Positions 1 to 34,354 of a DNA stretch of 64,000 nucleotides are shown in pieces (position 1 is the stretch's first letter; every line of letters begins with the position of its first letter). Source of the stretch: Psococerastis gibbosa (taxonomy: Eukaryota > Arthropoda > Insecta > Psocodea > Psocidae). Below the pieces are notes generated by a model. It was given only the letters and a program-made list of their open reading frames with translations, was not told the DNA's origin and searched no databases. Position numbers and translations under genes: made by a program. Location: NCBI GenBank assembly GCA_963971405.1, contig OZ020487.1, positions 20,135,371 to 20,199,370 on the forward strand. Direction: 5' to 3'.

Positions 1-267
1 TGTTAAGTTCAATACAATGAGCCAAAATAAGCAAAATTAAGACACCGTTATCATATCAAGACCTATAAAAAAAAAAAAAATAAGTAAATAGCTATTTTTT
101 TTATTCTTGTCGAATGAATTTTTTTAGCAACATTTAAACCGATAAACACGCAGGAGCAATTGCTCAATGTCAAGTACAATGCATTGAGCCAAAATAAGCA
201 AAATTAAGACACCTATATCTTTTAAAAACCTTTAAAAAAATAAAATAAGTAAATAGCTATTTTTCGT

Positions 268-280
268 ATTCTTGTCGAAT
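268..280. repeat. Short dyad ATTC-N5-GAAT (example)
   Basis: ATTC (268-271) and GAAT (277-280) are complementary arms separated by TTGTC. The element lies directly before the T-tract and recurs once per monomer. A monomer subtype in domain C reads TTGTCTTGTGAAT instead and so loses the dyad. This is the best-conserved block by eye and a useful monomer anchor. Any role in protein binding is inference. Confidence 0.6.
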
Positions 281-443
281 GAATTTTTTTTAGCTACATT
301 TACACCGATGAACACGCAGGAGCAATTGCTCAATGTTAAGTACAATACAATGAGCCAAAATAAGCCAAATTAAGACACCCGTGTCATATCAAGACCTTAA
401 AAAAAAATAAAATAAGTATATAGCTATTTTTCTTATTCTTTTC
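277..443 (+). repeat. Representative satellite monomer (167 bp)
   Basis: This is one full unit measured from the G after one TTGTC to the C of the next. In order it contains a T-tract of eight after GAATGAA, the AGCTACATTTACACCG segment, the GAGCAATTGCTC palindrome (320-331), the CAATGTTAAGTACAATACAATG segment with its internal ACAAT repeat, two AAAATAAG-like words, the variable segment after GACAC (here CCGTGTC), an A-tract after ACCTT, and a TATAGCTATTT version of the AT dyad. The variable segment after GACAC (TATATC, CATATC, TCATATC, GTTATC, CGTGTC, CTTATC) and the bases around CAATTG are the most useful columns for telling monomer types apart. It has no coding potential. Confidence 0.9.
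320..331. repeat. GAGCAATTGCTC perfect palindrome (example)
   Basis: These 12 bases read the same on both strands and are centred on CAATTG. The palindrome is intact in a large share of monomers in domains A and B. Common broken forms are GAGCAATTGCCT, GAGCAAGTGGCC and GAACAATTGCTC in A and B, and AAGCAACTGCTC, GAGCAATTGGTC and GAGCATTTGCTC in C. It is the GC-richest dyad of the monomer and a candidate protein-binding site; binding is not shown. Confidence 0.8.
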
Positions 444-577
444 GAATGAATTTTTTGTAGCTACATTTACACCGACGAACACGCAGGAGCAAGTGGCCAA
501 TGTTTAGTACAATACAATGAGCCTAAATAAGCAAAATTAAGACACCTATATCTTTATAAGACCTTTAAAAAAAATAA

Positions 578-604
578 AATAAGTAAATAGCTATTTTTCT
601 TATT
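578..604. repeat. Imperfect dyad around AAATAGCTATTT (example)
   Basis: The core AAATAGCTATTT (585-596) is a perfect 12-bp palindrome. It is flanked by AATAAG on the left (578-583) and its complement CTTATT on the right (599-604), with one unpaired base on one side and two on the other. The two arms together give about 12 paired positions. The same arrangement recurs in most monomers; some carry TATAGCTATTT, and in domain C some carry AAATATCTATTT, which breaks the core. It could be a cruciform-forming site or a dimer-binding site; no function is shown. Confidence 0.75.
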
Positions 605-3600
605 CTTGTCGAATGAATTTTTTTTAGCTACATTTAAACCGATGAACACAAAAGAACAATTTCTCCATGTTAAGTACAATACATTGAGCCAAAATAAGCA
701 AAATTAAGACACCTTTATCTTTTTGAAACCTTTAAAAAAAATAAAATAAGTAAATAGCTATTTTTCTTATTCTTGTCGAATGAATTTTTTTTAGCTACAT
801 TTACACCGATGAACACGCAGGAGCAATTGCTCAATGTTAAGTACAATACAATGAGCCAAAATAAGCAAAATTAAGACACCTATATCTTTTTAAAACCTTT
901 AAAAAAAATAAAATAAGTAAATAGCTATTTTTCATATTCTTGTCGAATGAATTTTTTTTAGCTACATTTACACCGATGAACACGCAGGAGCAATTGCTCA
1001 ATGTTAAGTACAATACAGTGAGCCAAAATAAGCAAACTTAAGACACTCATATCATATCAAGACCTTTAAAAAAAAAATAAGTATACAGCTATTTTTCGTA
1101 TTCTTGCCGAATGAATTTTTTGTAGGTACATTTACACCGATGAACACGCTGGAGCAATTGCCTAATGTTAGATACAGTACAATGAGCCAAAATAAGCAAA
1201 ATTAAGACACCTATATCTTTTTAAAACCTTTAAAAAAAATAAAATAAGTATATAGCTATTTTTCTTATTCTTGTCGAATGAAATTTTTTTAGCTACATTT
1301 ACACCGATCAACACGCAGGAGCAATTGCTCAATGTTAAGTACAATACAATGAGCCAAAATAAGCAAAATTAAGACACTCATATCATATTAAGACCTTTAA
1401 AAAAAAAAATAAGTATATAGCTATTTTTCGTATTCTTGTCGAATGAATTTTTTGTAGCTACATTTACACCGATGAACACGCTGGAGCAATTGCCTAATGT
1501 TAGATACAGTACAATGAGCCAAAATAAGCAAAATTAAGACACCTATATCTTTTAAAAACCTTTAAAAAAAATAAAATAAGTAATTAGCTATTTTTCGTAT
1601 TCTTGCCGTATGAATTTTTTTAAGCTACATTTACACCGATGAACACGCAGGAGCAATTGCTCAATGTTAAGTACAATACATTGAGCCAAAATAAGCAAAA
1701 TAAAGACACCTATATCTTTTTAAAACCTTTAAAAAAAATAAAATAAGTAAATAGCTATTTTTCTTATTCATGTCGAATGAATTTTTTTTAGCTACATTTA
1801 CACCGATGAACACGCAGGAGCAATTGCTCAATGTTAAGTACAATACAATGAGCCAAAATAAGCAAAATTAAGACACTCATATCATATCAAGACCTTTAAA
1901 AAAAAAAATAAGTATATAGCTATTTTTCGTATTCTTGTCGAATGAATTTTTTTTAGCCACATTTACACCGATGAACACGCATGAACAATTGCTTAATGTT
2001 AAGTTCAATACAATGAGCCAAAATAAGCAAAATTAAGACACCGTTATCATATCAAGACCTATAAAAAAAAATAAAATAAGTAAATAGCTATTTTTTTTAT
2101 TCTTGTCGAATGAATTTTTTTAGCAACATTTAAACCGATAAACACGCAGGAGCAATTGCTCAATGTTAAGTACAATACAATGAGCCAAAATAAGCCAAAT
2201 TAAGACACTCATATCATATCAAGACCTTGAAAAAAAAAAATAAGTAAATAGCTATTTTTCGTATTCTTGTCGAATGAATTTTTTGTAGCTACATTTACAC
2301 CGATGAACACGCTGGAGCAATTGCCTAATGTTAGATACAGTACAATGAGCCAAAATAAGCAAAATTAAGACACCTATATCTTTTTAAAACCTTTAAAAAA
2401 AATAAAATAAGTAAATAGCTATTTTTCTTATTCTTGTCGAATGAATTTTTTTTAGCCACATTTACACCGATGAACACGCAGGAACAATTGCTCAATGTTA
2501 AGTACAATACATTGAGCCAAAATAAGCAAAATTAAGACACCTATATCTTTTTAAAACCTTTAAAAAAAATAAAATAAGTAAATAGCTATTTTTCGTATTC
2601 TTGACGAATGAATTTTTTGTAGCTACATTTACACCGATGAACACGCTGGAGCAATTGCCTAATGTTAGATACAGTACAATGAGCCAAAATAAGCAAAATT
2701 AAGACACCTATATCTTTTTAAAACCTTTAAAAAAAATAAAATAAGCAAATAGCTATTTTTCTTATTCTTGTCGAATGAATTTTTTTTAGCCACATTTACA
2801 CCGATGAACACGCATGAACAATTGCTTAATGTTAAGTTCAATACAATGAGCCAAAATAAGCAAAATTAAGACACCGTTATCATATCAAGACCTATAAAAA
2901 AAAATAAAATAAGTAAATAGCTATTTTTTTTATTCTTGTCGAATGAATTTTTTTAGCAACATTTAAACCGATAAACACGCAGGAGCAATTGCTCAATGTC
3001 ACGTACAATGCATTGAGCCAAAATAAGCAAAATTAAGACACCTATATCTTTTAAAAACCTTTAAAAAAATAAAATAAGTAAATAGCTATTTTTCCTATTC
3101 TTGTCGAATGAATTTTTTTTAGCTACATTTACACCGATGAACACGCAGGAGCAATTCCTCAATGTTAAGTACAATACAATGAGCCAAAATAAGCCAAATT
3201 AAGACACCCGTGTCATATCAAGACCTTAAAAAAAAATAAAATAAGTATATAGCTATTTTTCTTATTCTTTTCGAATGAATTTTTTGTAGCTACATTTACA
3301 CCGATGAACACGCAGGAGCAAGTGGCCAATGTTATGTACAATACAATGAGCCTAAATAAGCAAAATTAAGACACCTATATCTTTATAAGACCTTTAAAAA
3401 AAATAAAATAAGTAAATAGCTATTTTTCTTATTCTTGTCGAATGAATTTTTTTTAGCTACATTTACACCGATGAACACAAAAGAACAATTTCTCCATGTT
3501 AAGTACAATACATTGAGCCAAAATAAGCAAAATTAAGACACCTATTTCTTTTTAAAACCTTTAAAAAAATAAAATAAGTAAATAGCTATTTTTCTGATTC

Positions 3601-4663
3601 CTGTCGAACGAATTTTTTTTAGCTACATTTACACCGATGAACACGCAGGAGCAATTGCTCAATGTTAAGTACAATACAATGAGCCAAAATAAGCCAAATT
3701 AAGACACCCGTGTCATATCAAGACCTTTAAAAAAAATAAAATATCTATTTAGCTATTTTTCGTATTCTTGTCGAATGAATTTTTTTAAGCTACATTTACA
3801 CCGACGAACACGCAGGAGCAATTGCTCAATGTTAAGTACAATACAATGAGCCAAAATAAGCAAAATTAAGACACTCATATCATATCAAGACCTTTAAAAA
3901 AAAAAAATAAGTAAATAGCTATTTTTCTGATTCCTGTCGAACGAATTTTTTTAAGCTACATTTACACCGATGAACACGCTGGAGCAATTGCCTAATGTTA
4001 GATACAGTACAATGAGCCAAAATAAGCAAAATTAAGACACCTATATCTTTTAAAAACCTTTAAAAAAAAATAAAATAAGTAATTAGCTATTTTTCGTATT
4101 CTTGCCGTATGAATTTTTTTAAGCTACATTTACACCGATGAACACTCAGGAGCAATTGCACAATGTTAAGTACAATACACTGAGCCAAAATAAGCAAAAT
4201 AAAGACACCTATATCTTTTTAAAACCTTTAAAAAAAATAAAATAAGTAAATAGCTATTTTTCTTATTCTTGTCGAATGAATTTTTTGTAGCTACATTTAC
4301 ACCGATGAACACGCTGGAGCAATTGCCTAATATTAGATACAGTACAATGAGCCAAAATAAGCAAAATTAAGACACCTATATCTTTTTAAAACCTTTAAAA
4401 AAAATAAAATAAGTAAATAGCTATTTTTCGTATTCTTGACGAATGAATTTTTTGTAGCTACATTTACACCGATGAACACGCTGGTGCAATTGCCTAATGT
4501 TAGATACAGTACAATGAGCCAAAATAAGCAAAATTAAGACACCTATATCTTTTTAAAACCTTTAAAAAAAATAAAATAAGTAAATAGCTATTTTTCTTAT
4601 TCTTGTCGAATGAATTTTTTTTAGCCACATTTACACCGATGAACACGCATGAACAATTGCTCA

Positions 4664-7660
4664 ATGTTAAGTTCAATACAATGAGCCAAAATAAGCAAAA
4701 TTAAGACACCGTTATCATATCAAGACCTATAAAAAAAAAAAATAAGTAAATAGCTATTTTTTTTATTCTTGTCGAATGAATTTTTTTAGCAACATTTAAA
4801 CCGATAAACACGCAGGAGCAATTGCTCAATGTCAAGTACAATGCAATGAGCCAAAATAAGCAAAATTAAGGCACCTATATCTTTTAAAAACCTTTAAAAA
4901 AATAAAATAAGTAAATAGCTATTTTTCCTATTCTTGTCGAATGAATTTTTTTTAGCTACATTTACACCGATGAACACTCAGGAGCAATTGCTCAATGTTA
5001 AGTACAATACAATGAGCCAAAATAAGCCAAATTAAGACACTCATATCATATCAAGACCTTGAAAAAAAAAAAATAAGTAAATAGCTGTTTTTCGTATTCT
5101 TGTCGAATGAATTTTTTGTAGCTACATTTACACCGATGAACACGCTGGAGCAATTGCCTGATGTTAGATACAGTACCATGAGCCAAAATAAGCAAAATTA
5201 AGACACCTATATCTTTTTAAAACCTTTAAAAAAAATAAAATAAGTAAATAGCTATTTTTCTTATTCTTGTCGAATGAATTTTTTTTAGCCACATTTACAC
5301 CGATGAACACGAAGGAACAATTGCTCAATGTTAAGTACAATACATTGAGCCAAAATAAGCAAAATTAAGACACCTATATCTTTTTAAAACCTTTAAAAAA
5401 AATAAAATAAGTAAATAGCTATTTTTCGTATTCTTGACGAATGAATTTTTTGTAGCTACATTTACACCGATGAACACGCTGGAGCAATTGCCTAATGTTA
5501 TATACAGTACAATGAGCCAAAATAAGCAAAATTAAGACACCTATATCTTTTTAAAACCTTTAAAAAAAATAAAATAAGTAAATAGCTATTTTTCTTATTC
5601 TTGTCGAATGAATTTTTTTTAGCCACATTTACACCGATGAACACGCATGAACAATTGCTTAATGTTAAGTTCAATACAATGAGCCAAAATAAGCAAAATT
5701 AAGACACCGTTATCATATCAAGACCTATAAAAAAAAAAAAAATAAGTAAATAGCTATTTTTTTTATTCTTGTCGAATGAATTTTTTTAGCAACATTTAAA
5801 CCGATAAACACGCAGGAGCAATTGCTCAATGTCAAGTACAATGCATTGAGCCAAAATAAGCAAAATTAAGACACCTATATCTTTTAAAAACCTTTAAAAA
5901 AATAAAATAAGTAAATAGCTATTTTTCGTATTCTTGTCGAATGAATTTTTTTTAGCTACATTTACACCGATGAACACGCAGGAGCAATTGCTCAATGTTA
6001 AGTACAATACAATGAGCCAAAATAAGCCAAATTAAGACACCCGTGTCATATCAAGACCTTAAAAAAAAATAAAATAAGTATATAGCTATTTTTCTTATTC
6101 TTTTCGAATGAATTTTTTGTAGCTACATTTACACCGACGAACACGCAGGAGCAAGTGGCCAATGTTTAGTACAATACAATGAGCCTAAATAAGCAAAATT
6201 AAGACACCTATATCTTTATAAGACCTTTAAAAAAAATAAAATAAGTAAATAGCTATTTTTCTTATTCTTGTCGAATGAATTTTTTTTAGCTACATTTAAA
6301 CCGATGAACACAAAAGAACAATTTCTCCATGTTAAGTACAATACATTGAGCCAAAATAAGCAAAATTAAGACACCTTTATCTTTTTGAAACCTTTAAAAA
6401 AAATAAAATAAGTAAATAGCTATTTTTCTTATTCTTGTCGAATGAATTTTTTTTAGCTACATTTACACCGATGAACACGCAGGAGCAATTGCTCAATGTT
6501 AAGTACAATACAATGAGCCAAAATAAGCAAAATTAAGACACCTATATCTTTTTAAAACCTTTAAAAAAAATAAAATAAGTAAATAGCTATTTTTCTTATT
6601 CTTGTCGAATGAATTTTTTTTAGCCACATTTACACCGATGAACACGCATGAACAATTGCTCAATGTTAAGTTCAATACAATGAGCCAAAATAAGCAAAAT
6701 TAAGACACCGTTATCATATCAAGACCTATAAAAAAAAAAAATAAGTAAATAGCTATTTTTTTTATTCTTGTCGAATGAATTTTTTTAGCAACATTTAAAC
6801 CGATAAACACGCAGGAGCAATTGCTCAATGTCAAGTACAATGCAATGAGCCAAAATAAGCAAAATTAAGGCACCTATATCTTTTAATAACCTTTAAAAAA
6901 ATAAAATAAGTAAATAGCTATTTTTCCTATTCTTGTCGAATGAATTTTTTTTAGCTACATTTACACCGATGAACACTCAGGAGCAATTGCTCAATGTTAA
7001 GTACAATACAATGAGCCAAAATAAGCCAAATTAAGACACTCATATCATATCAAGACCTTGAAAAAAAAAAATAAGTAAATAGCTGTTTTTCGTATTCTTG
7101 TCGAATGAATTTTTTGTAGCTACATTTACACCGATGAACACGCTGGAGCAATTGCCTAATGTTAGATACAGTACAATGAGCCAAAATAAGCAAAATTAAG
7201 ACACCTATATCTTTTTAAAACCTTTAAAAAAAATAAAATAAGTAAATAGCTATTTTTCTTATTCTTGTCGAATGAATTTTTTTTAGCCACATTTACACCG
7301 ATGAACACGCAGGAACAATTGCTCAATGTTAAGTACAATACATTGAGCCAAAATAAGCAAAATTAAGACACCTATATCTTTTTAAAACCTTTAAAAAAAA
7401 TAAAATAAGTAAATAGCTATTTTTCGTATTCTTGACGAATGAATTTTTTGTAGCTACGTTTACACCGATGAACACGCTGGAGCAATTGCCTAATGTTAGA
7501 TACAGTACAATGAGCCAAAATAAGCAAAATTAAGACACCTATATCTTTTTAAAACCTTTAAAAAAAATAAAATAAGTAAATAGCTATTTTTCTTATTCTT
7601 GTCGAATGAATTTTTTTTAGCCACATTTACACCGATGAACACGCATGAACAATTGCTTAA
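4664..7660 (+). repeat. Alternating 6-monomer sub-blocks within HOR copy 1
   Basis: The last 18 monomers of the unit are three blocks of about 1 kb, each opening with TGTTAAGTTCAATAC and the GTTATC monomer. The first (about 4664-5662) and third (about 6662-7660) match at an offset of 1,998 bp, both carrying AAGGCACC and CTGTTTTTCG. The middle block (5663 to about 6590) instead matches the start of the long unit at 1 and 7661, carrying AAGTGGCCAATGTTTAG and CTTTATCTTTTTGAAACC. The order is therefore alpha, beta, alpha, then beta again as the next unit starts. This suggests the long unit grew by duplication of a shorter 12-monomer unit. Confidence 0.75.
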
Positions 7661-10600
7661 TGTTAAGTTCAATACAATGAGCCAAAATAAGCAAAATTAA
7701 GACACCGTTATCATATCAAGACCTATAAAAAAAAAAAAAAAAAGTAAATAGCTATTTTTTTTATTCTTGTCGAATGAATTTTTTTAGCAACATTTAAACC
7801 GATAAACACGCAGGAGCAATTGCTCAATGTCAAGTACAATGCATTGAGCCAAAATAAGCAAAATTAAGACACCTATATCTTTTAAAAACCTTTAAAAAAA
7901 TAAAATAAGTAAATAGCTATTTTTCGTATTCTTGTCGAATGAATTTTTTTTAGCTACATTTACACCGATGAACACGCAGGAGCAATTGCTCAATGTCAAG
8001 TACAATACAATGAGCCAAAATAAGCCAAATTAAGACACCCGTGTCATATCAAGACCTTAAAAAAAAATAAAATAAGTATATAGCTATTTTTCTTATTCTT
8101 TTCGAATGAATTTTTTGTAGCTACATTTACACCGACGAACACGCAGGAGCAAGTGGCCAATGTTTAGTACAATACAATGAGCCTAAATAAGCAAAATTAA
8201 GACACCTATATCTTTATAAGACCTTTAAAAAAAATAAAATAAGTAAATAGCTATTTTTCTTATTCTTGTCGAATGAATTTTTTTTAGCTACATTTAAACC
8301 GATGAACACAAAAGAACAATTTCTCCATGTTAAGTACAATACATTGAGCCAAAATAAGCAAAATTAAGACACCTTTATCTTTTTGAAACCTTTAAAAAAA
8401 ATAAAATAAGTAAATAGCTATTTTTCTTATTCTTGTCGAATGAATTTTTTTTAGCTACATTTACACCGATGAACACGCAGGAGCAATTGCTCAATGTTAA
8501 GTACAATACAATGAGCCAAAATAAGCAAAATTAAGACACCTATATCTTTTTAAAACCTTTAAAAAAAATAAAATAAGTAAATAGCTATTTTTCATATTCT
8601 TGTCGAATGAATTTTTTTTAGCTACATTTACACCGATGAACACGCAGGAGCAATTGCTCAATGTTAAGTACAATACAGTGAGCCAAAATAAGCAAACTTA
8701 AGACACTCATATCATATCAAGACCTTTAAAAAAAAAAAAAGTATACAGCTATTTTTCGTATTCTTGCCGAATGAATTTTTTGTAGCTACATTTACACCGA
8801 TGAACACGCTGGAGCAATTGCCTAATGTTAGATACAGTACAATGAGCCAAAATAAGCAAAATTAAGACACCTATATCTTTTTAAAACCTTTAAAAAAAAT
8901 AAAATAAGTATATAGCTATTTTTCTTATTCTTGTCGAATGAAATTTTTTTAGCTACATTTACACCGATCAACACGCAGGAGCAATTGCTCAATGTTAAGT
9001 ACAATACAATGAGCCAAAATAAGCAAAATTAAGACACTCATATCATATTAAGACCTTTAAAAAAAAAAAATAAGTATATAGCTATTTTTCGTATTCTTGT
9101 CGAATGAATTTTTTGTAGCTACATTTACACCGATGAACACGCTGGAGCAATTGCCTAATGTTAGATACAGTACAATGAGCCAAAATAAGCAAAATTAAGA
9201 CACCTATATCTTTTAAAAACCTTTAAAAAAAATAAAATAAGTAATTAGCTATTTTTCGTATTCTTGCCGTATGAATTTTTTTAAGCTACATTTACACCGA
9301 TGAACACGCAGGAGCAATTGCTCAATGTTAAGTACAATACATTGAGCCAAAATAAGCAAAATAAAGACACCTATATCTTTTTAAAACCTTTAAAAAAAAT
9401 AAAATAAGTAAATAGCTATTTTTCTTATTCATGTCGAATGAATTTTTTTTAGCTACATTTACACCGATGAACACGCAGGAGCAATTGCTCAATGTTAAGT
9501 ACAATACAATGAGCCAAAATAAGCAAAATTAAGACACTCATATCATATCAAGACCTTTAAAAAAAAAAATAAGTATATAGCTATTTTTCGTATTCTTGTC
9601 GAATGAATTTTTTTTAGCCACATTTACACCGATGAACACGCATGAACAATTGCTTAATGTTAAGTTCAATACAATGAGCCAAAATAAGCAAAATTAAGAC
9701 ACCGTTATCATATCAAGACCTATAAAAAAAAATAAAATAAGTAAATAGCTATTTTTTTTATTCTTGTCGAATGAATTTTTTTAGCAACATTTAAACCGAT
9801 AAACACGCAGGAGCAATTGCTCAATGTTAAGTACAATACAATGAGCCAAAATAAGCCAAATTAAGACACTCATATCATATCAAGACCTTGAAAAAAAAAA
9901 TAAGTAAATAGCTATTTTTCGTATTCTTGTCGAATGAATTTTTTGTAGCTACATTTACACCGATGAACACGCTGGAGCAATTGCCTAATGTTAGATACAG
10001 TACAATGAGCCAAAATAAGCAAAATTAAGACACCTATATCTTTTTAAAACCTTTAAAAAAAATAAAATAAGTAAATAGCTATTTTTCTTATTCTTGTCGA
10101 ATGAATTTTTTTTAGCCACATTTACACCGATGAACACGCAGGAACAATTGCTCAATGTTAAGTACAATACATTGAGCCAAAATAAGCAAAATTAAGACAC
10201 CTATATCTTTTTAAAACCTTTAAAAAAAATAAAATAAGTAAATAGCTATTTTTCGTATTCTTGACGAATGAATTTTTTGTAGCTACATTTACACCGATGA
10301 ACACGCTGGAGCAATTGCCTAATGTTAGATACAGTACAATGAGCCAAAATAAGCAAAATTAAGACACCTATATCTTTTTAAAACCTTTAAAAAAAATAAA
10401 ATAAGCAAATAGCTATTTTTCTTATTCTTGTCGAATGAATTTTTTTTAGCCACATTTACACCGATGAACACGCATGAACAATTGCTTAATGTTAAGTTCA
10501 ATACAATGAGCCAAAATAAGCAAAATTAAGACACCGTTATCATATCAAGACCTATAAAAAAAAATAAAATAAGTAAATAGCTATTTTTTTTATTCTTGTC

Positions 10601-13600
10601 GAATGAATTTTTTTAGCAACATTTAAACCGATAAACACGCAGGAGCAATTGCTCAATGTCACGTACAATGCATTGAGCCAAAATAAGCAAAATTAAGACA
10701 CCTATATCTTTTAAAAACCTTTAAAAAAATAAAATAAGTAAATAGCTATTTTTCCTATTCTTGTCGAATGAATTTTTTTTAGCTACATTTACACCGATGA
10801 ACACGCAGGAGCAATTCCTCAATGTTAAGTACAATACAATGAGCCAAAATAAGCCAAATTAAGACACCCGTGTCATATCAAGACCTTAAAAAAAAATAAA
10901 ATAAGTATATAGCTATTTTTCTTATTCTTTTCGAATGAATTTTTTGTAGCTACATTTACACCGATGAACACGCAGGAGCAAGTGGCCAATGTTATGTACA
11001 ATACAATGAGCCTAAATAAGCAAAATTAAGACACCTATATCTTTATAAGACCTTTAAAAAAAATAAAATAAGTAAATAGCTATTTTTCTTATTCTTGTCG
11101 AATGAATTTTTTTTAGCTACATTTACACCGATGAACACAAAAGAACAATTTCTCCATGTTAAGTACAATACATTGAGCCAAAATAAGCAAAATTAAGACA
11201 CCTATTTCTTTTTAAAACCTTTAAAAAAATAAAATAAGTAAATAGCTATTTTTCTGATTCCTGTCGAACGAATTTTTTTTAGCTACATTTACACCGATGA
11301 ACACGCAGGAGCAATTGCTCAATGTTAAGTACAATACAATGAGCCAAAATAAGCCAAATTAAGACACCCGTGTCATATCAAGACCTTTAAAAAAAATAAA
11401 ATATCTATTTAACTATTTTTCGTATTCTTGTCGAATGAATTTTTTTAAGCTACATTTACACCGACGAACACGCAGGAGCAATTGCTCAATGTTAAGTACA
11501 ATACAATGAGCCAAAATAAGCAAAATTAAGACACTCATATCATATCAAGACCTTTAAAAAAAAAAAATAAGTAAATAGCTATTTTTCTGATTCCTGTCGA
11601 ACGAATTTTTTTAAGCTACATTTACACCGATGAACACGCTGGAGCAATTGCCTAATGTTAGATACAGTACAATGAGCCAAAATAAGCAAAATTAAGACAC
11701 CTATATCTTTTAAAAACCTTTAAAAAAAAATAAAATAAGTAATTAGCTATTTTTCGTATTCTTGCCGTATGAATTTTTTTAAGCTACATTTACACCGATG
11801 AACACTCAGGAGCAATTGCACAATGTTAAGTACAATACACTGAGCCAAAATAAGCAAAATAAAGACACCTATATCTTTTTAAAACCTTTAAAAAAAATAA
11901 AATAAGTAAATAGCTATTTTTCTTATTCTTGTCGAATGAATTTTTTTTAGCTACATTTACACCGATGAACACGCAGGAGCAATTGCTCAATGTTAAGTAC
12001 AATACAATGAGCCAAAATAAGCAAAATTTAGACACTCATATCATATCAAGACCTTTAAAAAAAAAAAATAAGTAAATAGCTATTTTTCGTATTCTTGTCG
12101 AATGAATTTTTTGTAGCTACATTTACACCGATGAACACGCTGGAGCAATTGCCTAATATTAGATACAGTACAATGAGCCAAAATAAGCAAAATTAAGACA
12201 CCTATATCTTTTTAAAACCTTTAAAAAAAATAAAATAAGTAAATAGCTATTTTTCGTATTCTTGACGAATGAATTTTTTGTAGCTACATTTACACCGATG
12301 AACACGCTGGTGCAATTGCCTAATGTTAGATACAGTACAATGAGCCAAAATAAGCAAAATTAAGACACCTATATCTTTTTAAAACCTTTAAAAAAAATAA
12401 AATAAGTAAATAGCTATTTTTCTTATTCTTGTCGAATGAATTTTTTTTAGCCACATTTACACCGATGAACACGCATGAACAATTGCTCAATGTTAAGTTC
12501 AATACAATGAGCCAAAATAAGCAAAATTAAGACACCGTTATCATATCAAGACCTATAAAAAAAAAAAATAAGTAAATAGCTATTTTTTTTATTCTTGTCG
12601 AATGAATTTTTTTAGCAACATTTAAACCGATAAACACGCAGGAGCAATTGCTCAATGTCAAGTACAATGCAATGAGCCAAAATAAGCAAAATTAAGGCAC
12701 CTATATCTTTTAAAAACCTTTAAAAAAATAAAATAAGTAAATAGCTATTTTTCCTATTCTTGTCGAATGAATTTTTTTTAGCTACATTTACACCGATGAA
12801 CACTCAGGAGCAATTGCTCAATGTTAAGTACAATACAATGAGCCAAAATAAGCCAAATTAAGACACTCATATCATATCAAGACCTTGAAAAAAAAAAAAT
12901 AAGTAAATAGCTGTTTTTCGTATTCTTGTCGAATGAATTTTTTGTAGCTACATTTACACCGATGAACACGCTGGAGCAATTGCCTAATGTTAGATACAGT
13001 ACAATGAGCCAAAATAAGCAAAATTAAGACACCTATATCTTTTTAAAACCTTTAAAAAAAATAAAATAAGTAAATAGCTATTTTTCTTATTCTTGTCGAA
13101 TGAATTTTTTTTAGCCACATTTACACCGATGAACACGCAGGAACAATTGCTCAATGTTAAGTACAATACATTGAGCCAAAATAAGCAAAATTAAGACACC
13201 TATATCTTTTTAAAACCTTTAAAAAAAATAAAATAAGTAAATAGCTATTTTTCGTATTCTTGACGAATGAATTTTTTGTAGCTACATTTACACCGATGAA
13301 CACGCTGGAGCAATTGCCTAATGTTAGATACAGTACAATGAGCCAAAATAAGCAAAATTAAGACACCTATATCTTTTTAAAACCTTTAAAAAAAATAAAA
13401 TAAGTAAATAGCTATTTTTCTTATTCTTGTCGAATGAATTTTTTTTTGCCACATTTACACCGATGAACACGCATGAACAATTGCTTAATGTTAAGTTCAA
13501 TACAATGAGCCAAAATAAGCAAAATTAAGACACCGTTATCATATCAAGACCTATAAAAAAAAAAAAAATAAGTAAATAGCTATTTTTTTTATTCTTGTCG

Positions 13601-15486
13601 AATGAATTTTTTTAGCAACATTTAAACCGATAAACACGCAGGAGCAATTGCTCAATGTCAAGTACAATGCATTGAGCCAAAATAAGCAAAATTAAGACAC
13701 CTATATCTTTTAAAAACCTTTAAAAAAATAAAATAAGTAAATAGCTATTTTTCGTATTCTTGTCGAATGAATTTTTTTTAGCTACATTTACACCGATGAA
13801 CACGCAGGAGCAATTGCTCAATGTTAAGTACAATACAATGAGCCAAAATAAGCCAAATTAAGACACCCGTGTCATATCAAGACCTTAAAAAAAAATAAAA
13901 TAAGTATATAGCTATTTTTCTTATTCTTTTCGAATGAATTTTTTGTAGCTACATTTACACCGACGAACACGCAGGAGCAAGTGGCCAATGTTTAGTACAA
14001 TACAATGAGCCTAAATAAGCAAAATTAAGACACCTATATCTTTATAAGACCTTTAAAAAAAATAAAATAAGTAAATAGCTATTTTTCTTATTCTTGTCGA
14101 ATGAATTTTTTTTAGCTACATTTAAACCGATGAACACAAAAGAACAATTTCTCCATGTTAAGTACAATACATTGAGCCAAAATAAGCAAAATTAAGACAC
14201 CTTTATCTTTTTGAAACCTTTAAAAAAAATAAAATAAGTAAATAGCTATTTTTCTTATTCTTGTCGAATGAATTTTTTTTAGCTACATTTACACCGATGA
14301 ACACGCAGGAGCAATTGCTCAATGTTAAGTACAATACAATGAGCCAAAATAAGCAAAATTAAGACACCTATATCTTTTTAAAACCTTTAAAAAAAATAAA
14401 ATAAGTAAATAGCTATTTTTCTTATTCTTGTCGAATGAATTTTTTTTAGCCACATTTACACCGATGAACACGCATGAACAATTGCTCAATGTTAAGTTCA
14501 ATACAATGAGCCAAAATAAGCAAAATTAAGACACCGTTATCATATCAAGACCTATAAAAAAAAAAATAAGTAAATAGCTATTTTTTTTATTCTTGTCGAA
14601 TGAATTTTTTTAGCAACATTTAAACCGATAAACACGCAGGAGCAATTGCTCAATGTCAAGTACAATGCAATGAGCCAAAATAAGCAAAATTAAGGCACCT
14701 ATATCTTTTAATAACCTTTAAAAAAATAAAATAAGTAAATAGCTATTTTTCCTATTCTTGTCGAATGAATTTTTTTTAGCTACATTTACACCGATGAACA
14801 CTCAGGAGCAATTGCTCAATGTTAAGTACAATACAATGAGCCAAAATAAGCCAAATTAAGACACTCATATCATATCAAGACCTTGAAAAAAAAAAAATAA
14901 GTAAATAGCTGTTTTTCGTATTCTTGTCGAATGAATTTTTTGTAGCTACATTTACACCGATGAACACGCTGGAGCAATTGCCTAATGTTAGATACAGTAC
15001 AATGAGCCAAAATAAGCAAAATTAAGACACCTATATCTTTTTAAAACCTTTAAAAAAAATAAAATAAGTAAATAGCTATTTTTCTTATTCTTGTCGAATG
15101 AATTTTTTTTAGCCACATTTACACCGATGAACACGCAGGAACAATTGCTCAATGTTAAGTACAATACATTGAGCCAAAATAAGCAAAATTAAGACACCTA
15201 TATCTTTTTAAAACCTTTAAAAAAAATAAAATAAGTAAATAGCTATTTTTCGTATTCTTGACGAATGAATTTTTTGTAGCTACATTTACACCGATGAACA
15301 CGCTGGAGCAATTGCCTAATGTTAGATACAGTACAATGAGCCAAAATAAGCAAAATTAAGACACCTATATCTTTTTAAAACCTTTAAAAAAAATAAAATA
15401 AGTAAATAGCTATTTTTCTTATTCTTGTCGAATGAATTTTTTTTAGCCACATTTACACCGATGAACACGCATGAACAATTGCTTAA
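7661..15486 (+). repeat. Domain A HOR copy 2 (47 monomers, 7,826 bp)
   Basis: This is the second tandem copy of the long unit. The marker CCGTTATCAT falls at 7705, 9702, 10534, 12535, 13532, 14534 and 15531, giving blocks of 12, 5, 12, 6, 6 and 6 monomers. The offset to copy 1 is 7,660 up to about 11,930 and 7,826 afterwards, because one extra monomer (about 11,936-12,101) is present here. It is more likely the full-length unit, although gain here and loss in copy 1 cannot be told apart from two copies. The A-tract after ACCTAT is unusually long near 7,726. Confidence 0.9.
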
Positions 15487-18400
15487 TGTTAAGTTCAATA
15501 CAATGAGCCAAAATAAGCAAAATTAAGACACCGTTATCATATCAAGACCTATAAAAAAAAAAAAAATAAGTAAATAGCTATTTTTTTTATTCTTGTCGAA
15601 TGAATTTTTTTAGCAACATTTAAACCGATAAACACGCAGGAGCAATTGCTCAATGTCAAGTACAATGCATTGAGCCAAAATAAGCAAAATTAAGACACCT
15701 ATATCTTTTAAAAACCTTTAAAAAAATAAAATAAGTAAATAGCTATTTTTCGTATTCTTGTCGAATGAATTTTTTTTAGCTACATTTACACCGATGAACA
15801 CGCAGGAGCAATTGCTCAATGTTAAGTACAATACAATGAGCCAAAATAAGCCAAATTAAGACACCCGTGTCATATCAAGACCTTAAAAAAAAATAAAATA
15901 AGTATATAGCTATTTTTCTTATTCTTTTCGAATGAATTTTTTGTAGCTACATTTACACCGACGAACACGCAGGAGCAAGTGGCCAATGTTTAGTACAATA
16001 CAATGAGCCTAAATAAGCAAAATTAAGACACCTATATCTTTATAAGACCTTTAAAAAAAATAAAATAAGTAAATAGCTATTTTTCTTATTCTTGTCGAAT
16101 GAATTTTTTTTAGCTACATTTAAACCGATGAACACAAAAGAACAATTTCTCCATGTTAAGTACAATACATTGAGCCAAAATAAGCAAAATTAAGACACCT
16201 TTATCTTTTTGAAACCTTTAAAAAAAATAAAATAAGTAAATAGCTATTTTTCTTATTCTTGTCGAATGAATTTTTTTTAGCTACATTTACACCGATGAAC
16301 ACGCAGGAGCAATTGCTCAATGTTAAGTACAATACAATGAGCCAAAATAAGCAAAATTAAGACACCTATATCTTTTTAAAACCTTTAAAAAAAATAAAAT
16401 AAGTAAATAGCTATTTTTCATATTCTTGTCGAATGAATTTTTTTTAGCTACATTTACACCGATGAACACGCAGGAGCAATTGCTCAATGTTAAGTACAAT
16501 ACAGTGAGCCAAAATAAGCAAACTTAAGACACTCATATCATATCAAGACCTTTAAAAAAAAAATAAGTATACAGCTATTTTTCGTATTCTTGCCGAATGA
16601 ATTTTTTGTAGCTACATTTACACCGATGAACACGCTGGAGCAATTGCCTAATGTTAGATACAGTACAATGAGCCAAAATAAGCAAAATTAAGACACCTAT
16701 ATCTTTTTAAAACCTTTAAAAAAAATAAAATAAGTATATAGCTATTTTTCTTATTCTTGTCGAATGAAATTTTTTTAGCTACATTTACACCGATCAACAC
16801 GCAGGAGCAATTGCTCAATGTTAAGTACAATACAATGAGCCAAAATAAGCAAAATTAAGACACTCATATCATATTAAGACCTTTAAAAAAAAAAAATAAG
16901 TATATAGCTATTTTTCGTATTCTTGTCGAATGAATTTTTTGTAGCTACATTTACACCGATGAACACGCTGGAGCAATTGCCTAATGTTAGATACAGTACA
17001 ATGAGCCAAAATAAGCAAAATTAAGACACCTATATCTTTTAAAAACCTTTAAAAAAAATAAAATAAGTAATTAGCTATTTTTCGTATTCTTGCCGTATGA
17101 ATTTTTTTAAGCTACATTTACACCGATGAACACGCAGGAGCAATTGCTCAATGTTAAGTACAATACATTGAGCCAAAATAAGCAAAATAAAGACACCTAT
17201 ATCTTTTTAAAACCTTTAAAAAAAATAAAATAAGTAAATAGCTATTTTTCTTATTCATGTCGAATGAATTTTTTTTAGCTACATTTACACCGATGAACAC
17301 GCAGGAGCAATTGCTCAATGTTAAGTACAATACAATGAGCCAAAATAAGCAAAATTAAGACACTCATATCATATCAAGACCTTTAAAAAAAAAAATAAGT
17401 ATATAGCTATTTTTCGTATTCTTGTCGAATGAATTTTTTTTAGCCACATTTACACCGATGAACACGCATGAACAATTGCTTAATGTTAAGTTCAATACAA
17501 TGAGCCAAAATAAGCAAAATTAAGACACCGTTATCATATCAAGACCTATAAAAAAAAATAAAATAAGTAAATAGCTATTTTTTTTATTCTTGTCGAATGA
17601 ATTTTTTTAGCAACATTTAAACCGATAAAAACGCAGGAGCAATTGCTCAATGTTAAGTACAATACAATGAGCCAAAATAAGCCAAATTAAGACACTCATA
17701 TCATATCAAGACCTTGAAAAAAAAAAATAAGTAAATAGCTATTTTTCGTATTCTTGTCGAATGAATTTTTTGTAGCTACATTTACACCGATGAACACGCT
17801 GGAGCAATTGCCAAATGTTAGATACAGTACAATGAGCCAAAATAAGCAAAATTAAGACACCTATATCTTTTTAAAACCTTTAAAAAAAATAAAATAAGTA
17901 AATAGCTATTTTTCTTATTCTTGTCGAATGAATTTTTTTTAGCCACATTTACACCGATGAACACGCAGGAACAATTGCTCAATGTTAAGTACAATACATT
18001 GAGCCAAAATAAGCAAAATTAAGACACCTATATCTTTTTAAAACCTTTAAAAAAAATAAAATAAGTAAATAGCTATTTTTCGTATTCTTGACGAATGAAT
18101 TTTTTGTAGCTACATTTACACCGATGAACACGCTGGAGCAATTGCCTAATGTTAGATACAGTACAATGAGCCAAAATAAGCAAAATTAAGACACCTATAT
18201 CTTTTTAAAACCTTTAAAAAAAATAAAATAAGCAAATAGCTATTTTTCTTATTCTTGTCGAATGAATTTTTTTTAGCCACATTTACACCGATGAACACGC
18301 ATGAACAATTGCTTAATGTTAAGTTCAATACAATGAGCCAAAATAAGCAAAATTAAGACACCGTTATCATATCAAGACCTATAAAAAAAAATAAAATAAG

Positions 18401-18929
18401 TAAATAGCTATTTTTTTTATTCTTGTCGAATGAATTTTTTTAGCAACATTTAAACCGATAAACACGCAGGAGCAATTGCTCAATGTCACGTACAATGCAT
18501 TGAGCCACAATAAGCAAAATTAAGACACCTATATCTTTATAAGACCTTTAAAAAAAATAAAATAAGTAAATAGCTATTTTTCTTATTCTTGTCGAATGAA
18601 TTTTTTTTAGCTACATTTACACCTATGAACACAAAAGAACAATTTCTCCATGTTAAGTACAATACATTGAGCCAAAATAAGCAAAATTAAGACACCTATT
18701 TCTTTTTAAAACCTTTAAAAAAATAAAATAAGTAAATAGCTATTTTTCTGATTCCTGTCGAACGAATTTTTTTTAGCTACATTTACACCGATGAACACGC
18801 AGGAGCAATTGCTCAATGTTAAGTACAATACAATGAGCCAAAATAAGCCAAATTAAGACACCCGTGTCATATCAAGACCTTTAAAAAAAATAAAATATCT
18901 ATTTAGCTATTTTTCGTATTCTTGTCGAA
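15487..18929 (+). repeat. Domain A HOR copy 3, partial and rearranged
   Basis: The third copy follows copy 2 in register, with CCGTTATCAT at 15531, 17528 and 18361 matching the first two blocks of the unit (12 and 5 monomers). At about 18,505 it jumps from the monomer after CAATGTCACG directly to the CTATATCTTTATAAGACC monomer, skipping two monomers that are present in copies 1 and 2. It continues through the GAACAATTTCTCCATG, CTGATTCCTGTCGAACG and AAATATCTATTTAGC monomers and then departs from the A pattern near 18,930, where GAATTTTTTGTAGC replaces GAATTTTTTTAAGC. This is the A/B transition; it happens within full-length monomers and without foreign sequence. Confidence 0.82.
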
Positions 18930-20979
18930 TGAATTTTTTGTAGCTACATTTACACCGATGAACACGCAGGAGCAAGTGGTTAATGTTAAGTACAATACAA
19001 TGAGCCTAAATAAGCAAAATTAAGACACCCTAGTCATATCAAGACCTTTAAAAAAAATAATATAAGTAATTAGCTATTTTTCTTATTCTTGTCGAATGAA
19101 TTTTTTTTAGCTACATTTACACCGATGAACACGCAGGAACAATTGCTCAATGTTAAGTAAAATACAATGAGCCAAAATAAGCAAAATTAAGACACTCATA
19201 TCATATCAAGACCTTTAAAAAAAAAAATAAGTATATAGCTATTTTTCGTATTCTTGTCGAATGAATTTTTTGTAGCTACATTTACTCCGATGAACACGCT
19301 GGAGCAATTGCCTGATGTTAGATACAGTACAGTGAGCCAAAATAAGCAATATTAAGACACCCATATCTTTTCAAGACCTTTAAAAAAAATTAAATAAGTA
19401 AATAGCTATTTTTCTTATTCTTGTCGAATGAATTTTTTTTAGCTACATTTACACCGACGAACACGCAGGAACAATTGCTCATTGTTAAGTACAATGCATT
19501 GAACCAAAATAAGCAAAATTAAGGCACCTATATCTTTTTAAAACCTTTAAAAAAATAAAATAAGTAAATAGCTATTTTTCTTATTCTTGTCGAATGAACT
19601 TTTTTTTAGCAACATTTAAACCGATGAACACGCAGGAGCAATTGTTTAATATCAAGTACGATACAATGAGCCAAAATAAGCAAAATTAAGACACCTATAT
19701 CTTTTTAAAACCTTTAAAAAAATAAAATAAGTAAATAGCTATTTTTCTTATTCTTGTCGAATGAATTTTTTTTAGCTACATTTACACCGACGAACACGCA
19801 GGAGCAATTTCTCAATGTTAATTACAATACAATGAGCCAAAATAAGCCAAATTAAGACACCCGTGTCATATCAACACCTTTAAAAAAAATAAAATAAGTA
19901 TATAGCTAATTTTCTTATTCTTGTCGAATGAATTTTTTTTAGCTACATTTACACCGATGAACACGCAGGAGCAATTGCTCAATGTTAAGTACAATACAAT
20001 GAGCCAAAATAAGCAAAATTTAGACACCCTCATCATATCAAGACCTTTAAAAAAAATAATATAAGTAAATAGCTATTTTTTTTATTCTTGTCGTATGAAT
20101 TTTTTTTAGCAACATTTAAACCGATGAACACGCAGGAGCAATTGCTCAATGTCAGGTACAATACAATGAGCCAAAATAAGCAAAATTAAGACACCTATAT
20201 CTTTTTAAAACCTTTAAAAAAATAAAATAAGTAAATAGCTATTTTTCTTATTCTTGTCGAATGAATTTTTCTAGCTACATTTACACCGATGAACACGCAG
20301 GAGCAATTGCTCAATGTTAATTACAATACAATGAGCCACAATAAGCCAAATTAAGACACCCGTTTCATATCAAGACCTTTAAAAAAAATAAAATAAGTAT
20401 ATAGCTATTTTTCGTATTCTTGTCGAATGAATTTTTTGTAGCTACATTTACACCGATGAACACGCAGGAGCAAGTGATCAATGTTAAGTACAATACAGTG
20501 AGCCTAAATAAGCAAAATTAAGACACCTATATCTTTTTAGGACCCTTAAAAAAAATAAAATAAGTAAATAGCTATTTTTCGTATTCTTGCCGTATGAATT
20601 TTTTTAAGCTACATTTACACCGACGAACACGCAGGAGCAATTGCTCAATATTAAATACAATACATTGAGCCAAAATAAGCAAAATTAAGACACCTATATC
20701 TTTAAAAGACCTTTAAAAAAAAAAAAGAAGTATATAGCTATTTTTCTTATTCTTGTCGAATGAATTTTTTTTAGCTACATTTACACCGATGAACACGCAG
20801 GAACAATTGCTCAATGTTAAGTACAATACATTGAGCCAAAATAAGCAAAATTAAGGCACCTATATCTTTTTAAAACCTTTAAAAAAAATAAAATAAGTAA
20901 ATAGCTATTTTTCGTATTCTTGTCGAATGAATTTTTTGTAGCTACATTTACACCGATGAACACGCAGGAGCAAGTGGTC
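18815..20979 (+). repeat. Domain B 13-monomer HOR, copy 1 (2,165 bp)
   Basis: The marker GCAAGTGGTTAATG and the following CCTAGTCATATC monomer occur near 18,971 and again near 21,136, an offset of 2,165 bp or 13 monomers. Other monomers in the same order are TTTACTCCGATG with GCCTGATG, AATTGTTTAATATC, ATTTCTCAATGTTAATTAC, CACAATAAGCC, TTTTTAGGACCCTT and GAAGTATATAGC. Its first monomer (AAATATCTATTTAGC) also occurs in domain A, so A and B share monomer types at their contact. Edges are approximate. Confidence 0.82.
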
Positions 20980-23010
20980 GATGTTAAGTACAATACAATG
21001 AGCCAAAATAAGCCAAATTAAGACACCCGTGTCATATCAAGACCTTTAAAAAAAATAAAATATCTATTTAGCTATTTTTCGTATTCTTGTCGAATGAATT
21101 TTTTGTAGCTACATTTACACCGATGAACACGCAGGAGCAAGTGGTTAATGTTAAGTACAATACAATGAGCCTAAATAAGCAAAATTAAGACACCCTAGTC
21201 ATATCAAGACCTTTAAAAAAAATAATATAAGTAATTAGCTATTTTTCTTATTCTTGTCGAATGAATTTTTTTTAGCTACATTTACACCGATGAACACGCA
21301 GGAACAATTGCTCAATGTTAAGTAAAATACAATGAGCCAAAATAAGCAAAATTAAGACACTCATATCATATCAAGACCTTTAAAAAAAAAAATAAGTATA
21401 TAGCTATTTTTCGTATTCTTGTCGAATGAATTTTTTGTAGCTACATTTACTCCGATGAACACGCTGGAGCAATTGCCTGATGTTAGATACAGTACAGTGA
21501 GCCAAAATAAGCAATATTAAGACACCCATATCTTTTCAAGACCTTTAAAAAAAATTAAATAAGTAAATAGCTATTTTTCTTATTCTTGTCGAATGAATTT
21601 TTTTTAGCTACATTTACACCGACGAACACGCAGGAACAATTGCTCAATGTTAAGTACAATGCATTGAACCAAAATAAGCAAAATTAAGGCACCTATATCT
21701 TTTTAAAACCTTTAAAAAAATAAAATAAGTAAATAGCTATTTTTCTTATTCTTGTCGAATGAACTTTTTTTTAGCAACATTTAAACCGATGAACACGCAG
21801 GAGCAATTGTTTAATATCAAGTACGATACAATGAGCCAAAATAAGCAAAATTAAGACACCTATATCTTTTTAAAACCTTTAAAAAAATAAAATAAGTAAA
21901 TAGCTATTTTTCTTATTCTTGTCGAATGAATTTTTTTTAGCTACATTTACACGGACGAACACGCAGGAGCAATTTCTCAATGTTAATTACAATAGAATGA
22001 GCCAAAATAAGCCAAATTAAGACACCCGTGTCATATCAACACCTTTAAAAAAAATAAAATAAGTATATAGCTAATTTTCTTATTCTTGTCGAATGAATTT
22101 TTTTTAGCTACATTTACACCGATGAACACGCAGAAGCAATTGCTCAATGTTAAGTACAATACAATGAGCCAAAATAAGCAAAATTTAGACACCCTTATCA
22201 TATCAAGACCTTTAAAAAAAATAATATAAGTAAATAGCTATTTTTTTTATTCTTGTCGAATGAATTTTTTTTAGCAACATTTAAACCGATGAACACGCAG
22301 GAGCAATTGCTCAATGTCAGGTACAATACAATGAGCCAAAATAAGCAAAATTAAGACACCTATATCTTTTTAAAACCTTTAAAAAAATAAAATAAGTAAA
22401 TAGCTATTTTTCTTATTCTTGTCGAATGAATTTTTCTAGCTACATTTACACCGATGAACACGCAGGAGCAATTGCTCAATGTTAATTACAATACAATGAG
22501 CCACAATAAGCCAAATTAAGACACCCGTTTCATATCAAGACCTTTAAAAAAAATAAAATAAGTATATAGCTATTTTTCGTATTCTTGTCGAATGAATTTT
22601 TTGTAGCTACATTTACACCGATGAACACGCAGGAGCAAGTGATCAATGTTAAGTACAATACAGTGAGCCTAAATAAGCAAAATTAAGACACCTATATCTT
22701 TTTAGGACCCTTAAAAAAAATAAAATAAGTAAATAGCTATTTTTCGTATTCTTGCCGTATGAATTTTTTTAAGCTACATTTACACCGACGAACACGCAGG
22801 AGCAATTGCTCAATATTAAATACAATACATTGAGCCAAAATAAGCAAAATTAAGACACCTATATCTTTAAAAGACCTTTAAAAAAAAAAAAGAAGTATAT
22901 AGCTATTTTTCTTATTCTTGTCGAATGAATTTTTTTTAGCTACATTTACACCGATGAACACGCAGGAACAATTGCTCAATGTTAAGTACAATACATTGAG
23001 CAAAAATAAG
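20980..23010 (+). repeat. Domain B 13-monomer HOR, copy 2 (end incomplete)
   Basis: This is a tandem copy of the preceding 13-monomer unit at a 2,165-bp offset, with the same order of diagnostic monomers and only scattered substitutions (for example ACACGGACGAAC near 21,950 and CAGAAGC near 22,130). It departs near 23,000: the expected AAGGCACC monomer is replaced by one reading GAGCAAAAATAAG and AAGACACC. The last part of a unit is therefore missing or overwritten. Confidence 0.8.
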
Positions 23011-34272: not shown

Positions 34273-34354
34273 TATAAGCAAAATTAAGACACCTATATCT
34301 TTTTAAGACCTTTAAAAAAAAATTAACTAAATTGCTATTTTTCTTATTCTTGTC
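34249..34354 (+). repeat. Truncated monomer at the domain B/C boundary
   Basis: The anchor spacing falls to 105 bp (34,249 to 34,354). AGCTACATTTA is followed at once by TAAGCAAAATTAAG, so about 60 bp are missing: the CACCGATG segment, the GAGCAATTGCTC palindrome and the ACAATACAATGAGCC segment. To the left the monomers are domain B types. To the right they become domain C types, starting with TTAACTAAATTGC, TTGTCTTGTGAATTTTTAGTAGC and ACACGGATG. This is one of only two kinds of out-of-register joint in the window and has no more than a base or so of visible homology. Confidence 0.85.

What the first reader, a model, noticed from the sequence alone, without database searches (positions are those of the whole stretch)
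1..15486. Very long satellite HOR of 46-47 monomers (7.66 and 7.83 kb)
Two tandem copies line up over their full length at offsets of 7,660 and then 7,826 bp, with a third beginning at 15,487. HORs of this many monomers are uncommon; well-known satellite HORs are usually a few to about 20 monomers. The near identity over almost 8 kb implies recent large-scale amplification, or gene conversion over long tracts.
Basis: seen in the sequence. Interest (0 to 1): 0.7.

Follow-up and report, generated by a model that had tools for sequence, protein, structure and literature searches.

The report
Locally duplicated barkfly satellite DNA
The long repeat is real, but it is one of many tandem duplications of all sizes inside a megabase-sized satellite block of a barkfly chromosome, present in about two and a half copies, and not a regular very long higher-order repeat.

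Summary
In detail: 1-7660 and 7661-15486 are 99.86% identical (11 substitutions, four 1-bp indels, one missing 166-bp monomer). The interpretation only partly holds. The repeat spans window -1146 to 18,500: a 46-mer, a 47-mer and a 25-monomer fragment, about 2.5 copies; nothing continues upstream. The unit is not irreducible: its 46 monomers are 25 types, with an internal 12-monomer repeat. In 264 kb of contiguous array 54 tandem duplications of 2-55 monomers were called, 51 of them at no more than 2.15 copies; a 55-mer is longer. No period dominates.

Best mechanism: in-register unequal exchange or break-induced replication; the 46/47 difference is a chimeric-monomer deletion. A new member of a known kind. 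Two side results are more interesting: the assembled "Y" is about half this satellite although cytogenetics calls the species X(0), and large interstitial blocks contrast with reported terminal C-bands.

The parts
1..6514 (+). Copy A (46 monomers, 7661 bp; it begins 1147 bases before the window, at C12:20134224)
   Evidence: monomer identity A/B 98.2-100% for the 32 monomers from -1146 to 4180, 92.2% in the monomer just before
6515..14340 (+). Copy B (47 monomers, 7826 bp)
14341..18500 (+). Copy C, partial (25 monomers, 4160 bp), ends abruptly
   Evidence: A/C and B/C identity falls from 100% to 91.6% at unit position 3015 (window 18501)
4182..4348 (+). Chimeric monomer in copy A; explains 46 against 47 monomers
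   Evidence: identical to B monomer 11842-12008 over bases 1-105 and to B monomer 12009-12174 over bases 83-167
11842..12174 (+). The two B monomers whose parts make up the chimeric A monomer
4516..8512 (+). Internal 12-monomer tandem pair (2.0 copies, 99.45%) straddling the A/B boundary; the same arrangement recurs at 12342-16338
18835..22997 (+). Next tandem duplication, 13 monomers (1.92 copies, 99.65%)
34274..34275 (.). Out-of-register junction between two stretches of the array that share no monomer type at 2%

Best explanation
The region is part of a roughly 2-Mb block of a 166/167-bp satellite on chromosome 4 of the barkfly Psococerastis gibbosa. The array is reshaped by frequent, mostly local, in-register tandem duplications and deletions of blocks of 2 to about 55 monomers, by unequal sister-chromatid exchange or by break-induced replication restarting one block behind. 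The 46/47-mer is one such recent duplication. A 47-monomer segment (7.83 kb) that held a 12-monomer tandem pair was duplicated and partly triplicated (2.5 copies), and copy A then lost exactly one monomer by exchange between neighbours, which left a chimeric monomer. Shown: copies, extents, identity, nesting, the chimera, the range of periods. Inferred: which recombination pathway, the order and direction of events, and recency.
For: 99.86% A/B identity and exact extents. Chimeric monomer. 54 tandem duplications of 2-55 monomers called in 1560 monomers (97% identity, run at least 0.8 of the period), 51 of 54 with 2.15 copies or fewer, 1089 of 1560 monomers inside one. No dominant period: of offsets 1-199 the best (34 monomers) has 104 pairs at 98% or better out of 1526 possible. 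In 264 kb near-identity is mostly shared within stretches of tens of kb to over 100 kb, although the median identity between any two 10-kb blocks is 87-90%. A neutral simulation of random in-register duplication and deletion without a favoured period gave, at one mutation per step, 59, 81 and 55 tandem pairs per 1560 monomers, longest period 42, 35 and 40, and 84-94% with 2.15 copies or fewer.
Against: The simulation's parameters were chosen, not fitted, and its infinite-alleles labels differ from the 97% identity criterion. Over its 12 arrays it gave 14-109 pairs, 57-100% with 2.15 copies or fewer, and longest periods of 21-66; only 3 of 12 reached 46 and 1 of 12 reached the observed 55. The 54 called duplications are not independent: some are copies of each other inside larger ones. 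Sharing is not strictly local: window 1-500 has matches of 98-99% about 0.4-0.8 Mb away on the same chromosome and of 98% on C14 and C21. No reads were examined, so an assembly artefact is not excluded. Unequal exchange and break-induced replication cannot be told apart here. The 12-monomer boundary coincides with the unit boundary, which this model does not explain by itself.
Confidence: 0.85

Rival explanations
1. A true long higher-order repeat of 46-47 monomers, amplified as a unit, of which the window shows the edge.
For: Two full copies and a partial one at 99.75-99.86%.
Against: The 264 kb of contiguous sequence around it hold no further full copy. The unit consists of 25 types in 46 monomers with internal repeats. 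Many other periods are equally conserved.
Confidence: 0.06
2. Assembly artefact: one 7.8-kb block, or two allelic versions, was assembled twice in tandem.
For: Highly repetitive region. The genome note reports 91 misjoins or missing joins corrected and 20 haplotypic duplications removed. The copies are near-identical.
Against: A and B differ at 11 sites, four 1-bp indels and one monomer, with successive differences at most about 1.5 kb apart, whereas mean HiFi read length is about 9.4 kb (22.19 Gb / 2.36 M reads) and primary QV is 60.4. Such reads should separate the copies. Duplications of this kind are called 54 times in 264 kb. There is no N in the 264 kb.
Confidence: 0.07
3. Gene conversion over long tracts, rather than duplication, keeps the copies alike.
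For: Conversion would also give near-identity and could explain variants shared over tens of kb or between distant places.
Against: Conversion does not create new tandem copies or abrupt ends at -1146 and 18,500. The differences are scattered along A/B.
Confidence: 0.1

Closest known systems
Alpha-satellite higher-order repeats (human; longest given as 34 monomers, Y chromosome, in PMC8997354, passages only)
   Same: About 170-bp AT-rich monomers (alpha figure recalled), head to tail; multi-monomer blocks nearly identical between copies while monomers inside a block are about 89% alike; nested structure.
   Different: About 2.5 copies; no dominant period; unit contains repeated sub-blocks; monomers much closer to each other than the 50-70% quoted for pairs within an alpha HOR; no CENP-B-box match; holokinetic species.
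Irregular, local higher-order repeats of the Arabidopsis centromere satellite (recalled; my one search listed a single other paper, not read)
   Same: Duplications of many sizes, mostly local, no fixed HOR.
   Different: Other organism; no CENH3 data; period lengths not compared.
Megabase satellite arrays as holocentromere units, Chionographis japonica (PMC10264360, abstract and passages)
   Same: Megabase satellite blocks on chromosomes of a holocentric species.
   Different: There 7-11 evenly spaced CENH3-positive units per chromosome with 23/28-bp monomers; here no even spacing shown, no chromatin data, 167-bp monomer.

Membership tests
Satellite DNA (megabase tandem array) | Long head-to-tail arrays of a monomer of one length | tested here: met
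   1560 + strand monomer matches in 264 kb, 1513 of them 162-167 bp; 58,855 exact 17-mer hits genome-wide, 0 for the reversed control
Higher-order repeat (HOR) | Multi-monomer unit repeated in tandem with near-identity, monomers inside clearly more diverged | tested here: met
   99.86% between units against a median of about 89% between monomers of the window
Higher-order repeat (HOR) | Unit is an irreducible n-mer | tested here: not met
   46 monomers = 25 types at 2%, internal 12-mer pair
Higher-order repeat (HOR) | Unit repeated many times and dominates its array | tested here: not met
   about 2.5 copies; 54 called duplications of other or similar periods in the 264 kb read
Active centromere satellite | CENP-A or kinetochore occupancy | not testable with these tools
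   no chromatin data; a CENP-C family search did not complete
Active centromere satellite | CENP-B box (motif recalled) | tested here: not met
   0 matches with up to 1 mismatch in 64 kb, 2.08 expected by chance; many centromeric satellites lack it, so weak
Holocentromere unit (Chionographis type) | Several evenly spaced megabase arrays per chromosome | tested here: inconclusive
   Sparse map of 22 rare-variant hits: C12 18.89-21.00 Mb (6), C14 0.13 (1) and 11.63-11.83 Mb (4), C16 0.56-0.57 (3), C19 34.63-34.68 of 35.30 Mb (6), C21 10.49 (1), C35 (1); further maps did not complete

The most novel reading that the evidence does not exclude
The megabase satellite blocks of P. gibbosa are kinetochore-recruiting units of a holocentric insect chromosome, and their HOR-like churning is driven there without CenH3; to my knowledge (no search was aimed at this) that would be the first repeat-based holocentromere in insects. 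The weaker form is that HOR-like nested duplication arises in a satellite block that is no localised centromere at all, so it needs no kinetochore-induced fork stalling. That form is more likely (I would give it about 0.4).
Probability: 0.05. Interest if true: 0.8.

Novelty: new member of a known kind. Interest (0 to 1): 0.28.

Why it matters
It corrects a 'record-length HOR' to a plausible outcome of random in-register tandem duplication, and shows how a two-copy duplication can look like a giant HOR in a short window. It also documents HOR-like turnover in a species with holokinetic chromosomes, where one proposed explanation of HORs (kinetochore-driven fork stalling and break-induced replication at a localised centromere, reviewed in PMC8997354, passages) may not apply. 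That makes this species a test case for whether HOR-like structure needs a centromere.

Tried and rejected
Rejected: a canonical 46/47-mer HOR (copy number and irreducibility fail). Rejected: a shorter single period explaining everything. Rejected: inverted structure (no reverse HSP in the self-BLAST, which was capped at 3000 HSPs; no minus-strand monomer match above 60 bits in 264 kb). The first 2 kb of the window have no match in plasmid records, and five consensus fragments are in no held paper. I first took the 2.9-kb insertion at C12:20224515 for a P-element-like transposon; Pfam gave no family for either ORF, so I leave it unassigned. A per-chromosome satellite map and a CENP-C search could not be finished because the genome search mostly did not answer. 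Literature on psocid satellites: two searches of the held open-access library gave no paper and one paper on ribosomal genes that I did not open; most subscription journals are not held.
Full report
What is there. The window is G000:C12:20135371-20199370 and consists entirely of a 166/167-bp AT-rich satellite (28-30% GC), with 387 + strand monomer matches and only weak partial minus-strand ones. 1-7660 against 7661-15486: 7647 identities, 11 mismatches, 170 gap columns, 99.86%. The differences are 11 substitutions, four single-base indels and one 166-bp gap. 15487-23312 against B is only 94.2%, because the match stops at 18,500.

Extent. With the contiguous flanks (100 kb on each side) the homology runs from C12:20134224 (window -1146) to window 18,500. 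Copy A is 46 monomers, B 47 and C 25, about 2.5 copies in 19.6 kb. Monomer identity rises from 92.2 to 99.4% at the left end and falls from 100 to 91.6% at the right end. No further full copy exists in the 264 kb; the rest of the block was not read.

Internal structure. At a 2% cut the first 46 monomers of the window fall into 25 types. Types 1-4 and 14-17 recur, and a 12-monomer block is tandemly paired at 4516-8512 and again at 12342-16338. The unit is therefore itself a product of earlier duplications.

The 46/47 difference. Monomer 4182-4348 of A equals B monomer 11842-12008 over its bases 1-105 and B monomer 12009-12174 over its bases 83-167, so bases 83-105 are identical to both. I infer that A is the derived, one-monomer-shorter form, because B holds sequence that A lacks. 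This is what an in-register exchange between neighbours leaves.

The surroundings. In 1560 monomers (264 kb) 54 tandem duplications with periods from 2 to 55 monomers were called (97% identity, run at least 0.8 of the period, so at least 1.8 copies by construction). 51 of 54 have 2.15 copies or fewer, and 1089 of 1560 monomers lie in at least one; the calls are not independent, since some are copies of each other. In that list the 47-mer counts once and is the second longest; a 55-mer (offset 9150 bp; 99.83%) lies at C12:20042023-20058988. Of offsets 1-199 none dominates. In 20 shuffles of monomer order the longest run at 98% was 2-3 monomers, while 785 of 1560 real monomers lie in runs of 20 or more.

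Domains. Near-identical monomers are mostly shared within stretches. The 10-kb blocks lying wholly between window -31.5 and 27 kb share 0% of monomers at 98% or better with the blocks from 37 to 164 kb, and the block that contains the junction at 34,274 shares with both sides. The left stretch (-100 to -41 kb) and the right one share 0-19%. Against strict locality: window 1-500 has 98-99% matches near 19.68-19.72 and 20.78-20.94 Mb of C12, and 98% matches on C14 and C21.

Simulation. Random in-register duplication and deletion with exponential lengths (mean 15 monomers) and no favoured period gives comparable spectra at one mutation per step (55-81 pairs per 1560 monomers, longest period 35-42). 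Over all 12 arrays: 14-109 pairs, longest period 21-66, 3 of 12 at 46 or more and 1 of 12 at 55 or more. The parameters were chosen, not fitted.

Where it comes from. G000 has 409,210,807 bases in 68 contigs and a 17,084-base contig with COX1. Nine contig lengths that I saw are 53.62, 50.33, 49.17, 47.05, 46.55, 34.83, 35.30, 22.82 and 12.03 Mb. The Psococerastis gibbosa genome note (PMC12559846, abstract and passages) gives 409.21 Mb, 69 scaffolds, a 17.08-kb mitochondrion and the same lengths, with 47.06 for 47.05. C12 is then chromosome 4, C20 is X and C21 is 'Y'. The inference rests on sizes, not on a name given by a tool.

The block. Of 20 probes on C12, satellite fills all 8 from 19.0 to 19.9 Mb and both at 20.95 and 21.0 Mb, and part of those at 20.6 and 20.8 Mb (retroelement sequence with RNase H, at 20.6 Mb also reverse transcriptase). 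None was found in the 8 probes at 18.0, 18.5, 20.4, 21.1, 21.3, 21.6, 22 and 23 Mb. A rare-variant search adds 18.89 Mb. So the block runs from somewhere between 18.5 and 18.9 Mb to between 21.0 and 21.1 Mb of 49.17 Mb, with at least one non-satellite stretch near 20.4 Mb. Genome-wide the 17-mer count (58,855) scaled by the local density (809 in 264 kb) suggests about 19 Mb of satellite (4.7%), if density is alike elsewhere.

Biology. Psocoptera have holokinetic chromosomes, and P. gibbosa itself was studied: 2n = 16 + X(0), with small terminal AT-rich C-blocks reported for it and two other species (PMC6910881 and PMC8490342, passages). CenH3 was not found in lice and bugs (PMC4359364, passages; the word Psocoptera does not occur there). 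A large satellite block in this species is therefore not automatically a centromere. Whether it recruits kinetochores is untested here; the CENP-C search did not complete.

Mechanism. In-register unequal exchange or break-induced replication (both reviewed in PMC8997354, passages) explains tandem pairs of arbitrary size, the nesting and the chimera. The A/B divergence (0.14%) is below the reported heterozygosity (0.64%), so the duplication is probably young and may be polymorphic (inference).

Verdict. The repeat is real, the 'very long HOR' label is an over-reading, and it is a new member of a known kind.

Noticed in passing
G000:C21 (12,031,718 bp, the assembled 'Y'): 9 of the 10 probes from 6.0 to 11.4 Mb are this satellite and 0 of 10 below 6.0 Mb, which fits the 34% GC in the genome note. 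Cytogenetics describes the species as 2n=16+X(0), so the 'Y' may be a B chromosome, a regional Y, or collected heterochromatin contigs.
   Followed up: partly
G000:C12 about 18.9-21.0 Mb and C14 hits at 11.6-12.5 Mb: Interstitial satellite (about 2 Mb on C12), while only small terminal AT-rich C-blocks were reported. Of 10 chromosome starts looked at, 4 (C2, C13, C14, C20) begin in satellite, 4 (C1, C3, C15, C21) do not and 2 (C12, C19) read N. Scaffolding error or unseen bands.
   Followed up: partly
window 34274: Out-of-register junction between two stretches of satellite that share no monomer type at 2%.
   Followed up: partly
window 50694-50912 and 55226-55444: Pair of truncated monomers (118 + 100 bp), present in both copies of a 28-monomer tandem pair of 100.0% identity (4532-bp offset).
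   Followed up: no
C12:20224515-20227412 (L021:5145-8042): 2.9-kb coding insertion in the satellite, ORFs of 564 and 186 aa separated by a stop, no Pfam family at E 0.01.
   Followed up: partly
C12:20071407, 20074345, 20078449: Three non-satellite gaps of 834-837 bp; the two that I printed are the same sequence, apparently carried along by the tandem duplications there.
   Followed up: no
C14:11085363-11086704: Near-complete second copy of COX1 (two adjoining matches) about 0.5 Mb from the nearest C14 satellite hit; 43 COX1 matches in the genome, most of them short, which looks like nuclear mitochondrial DNA.
   Followed up: no
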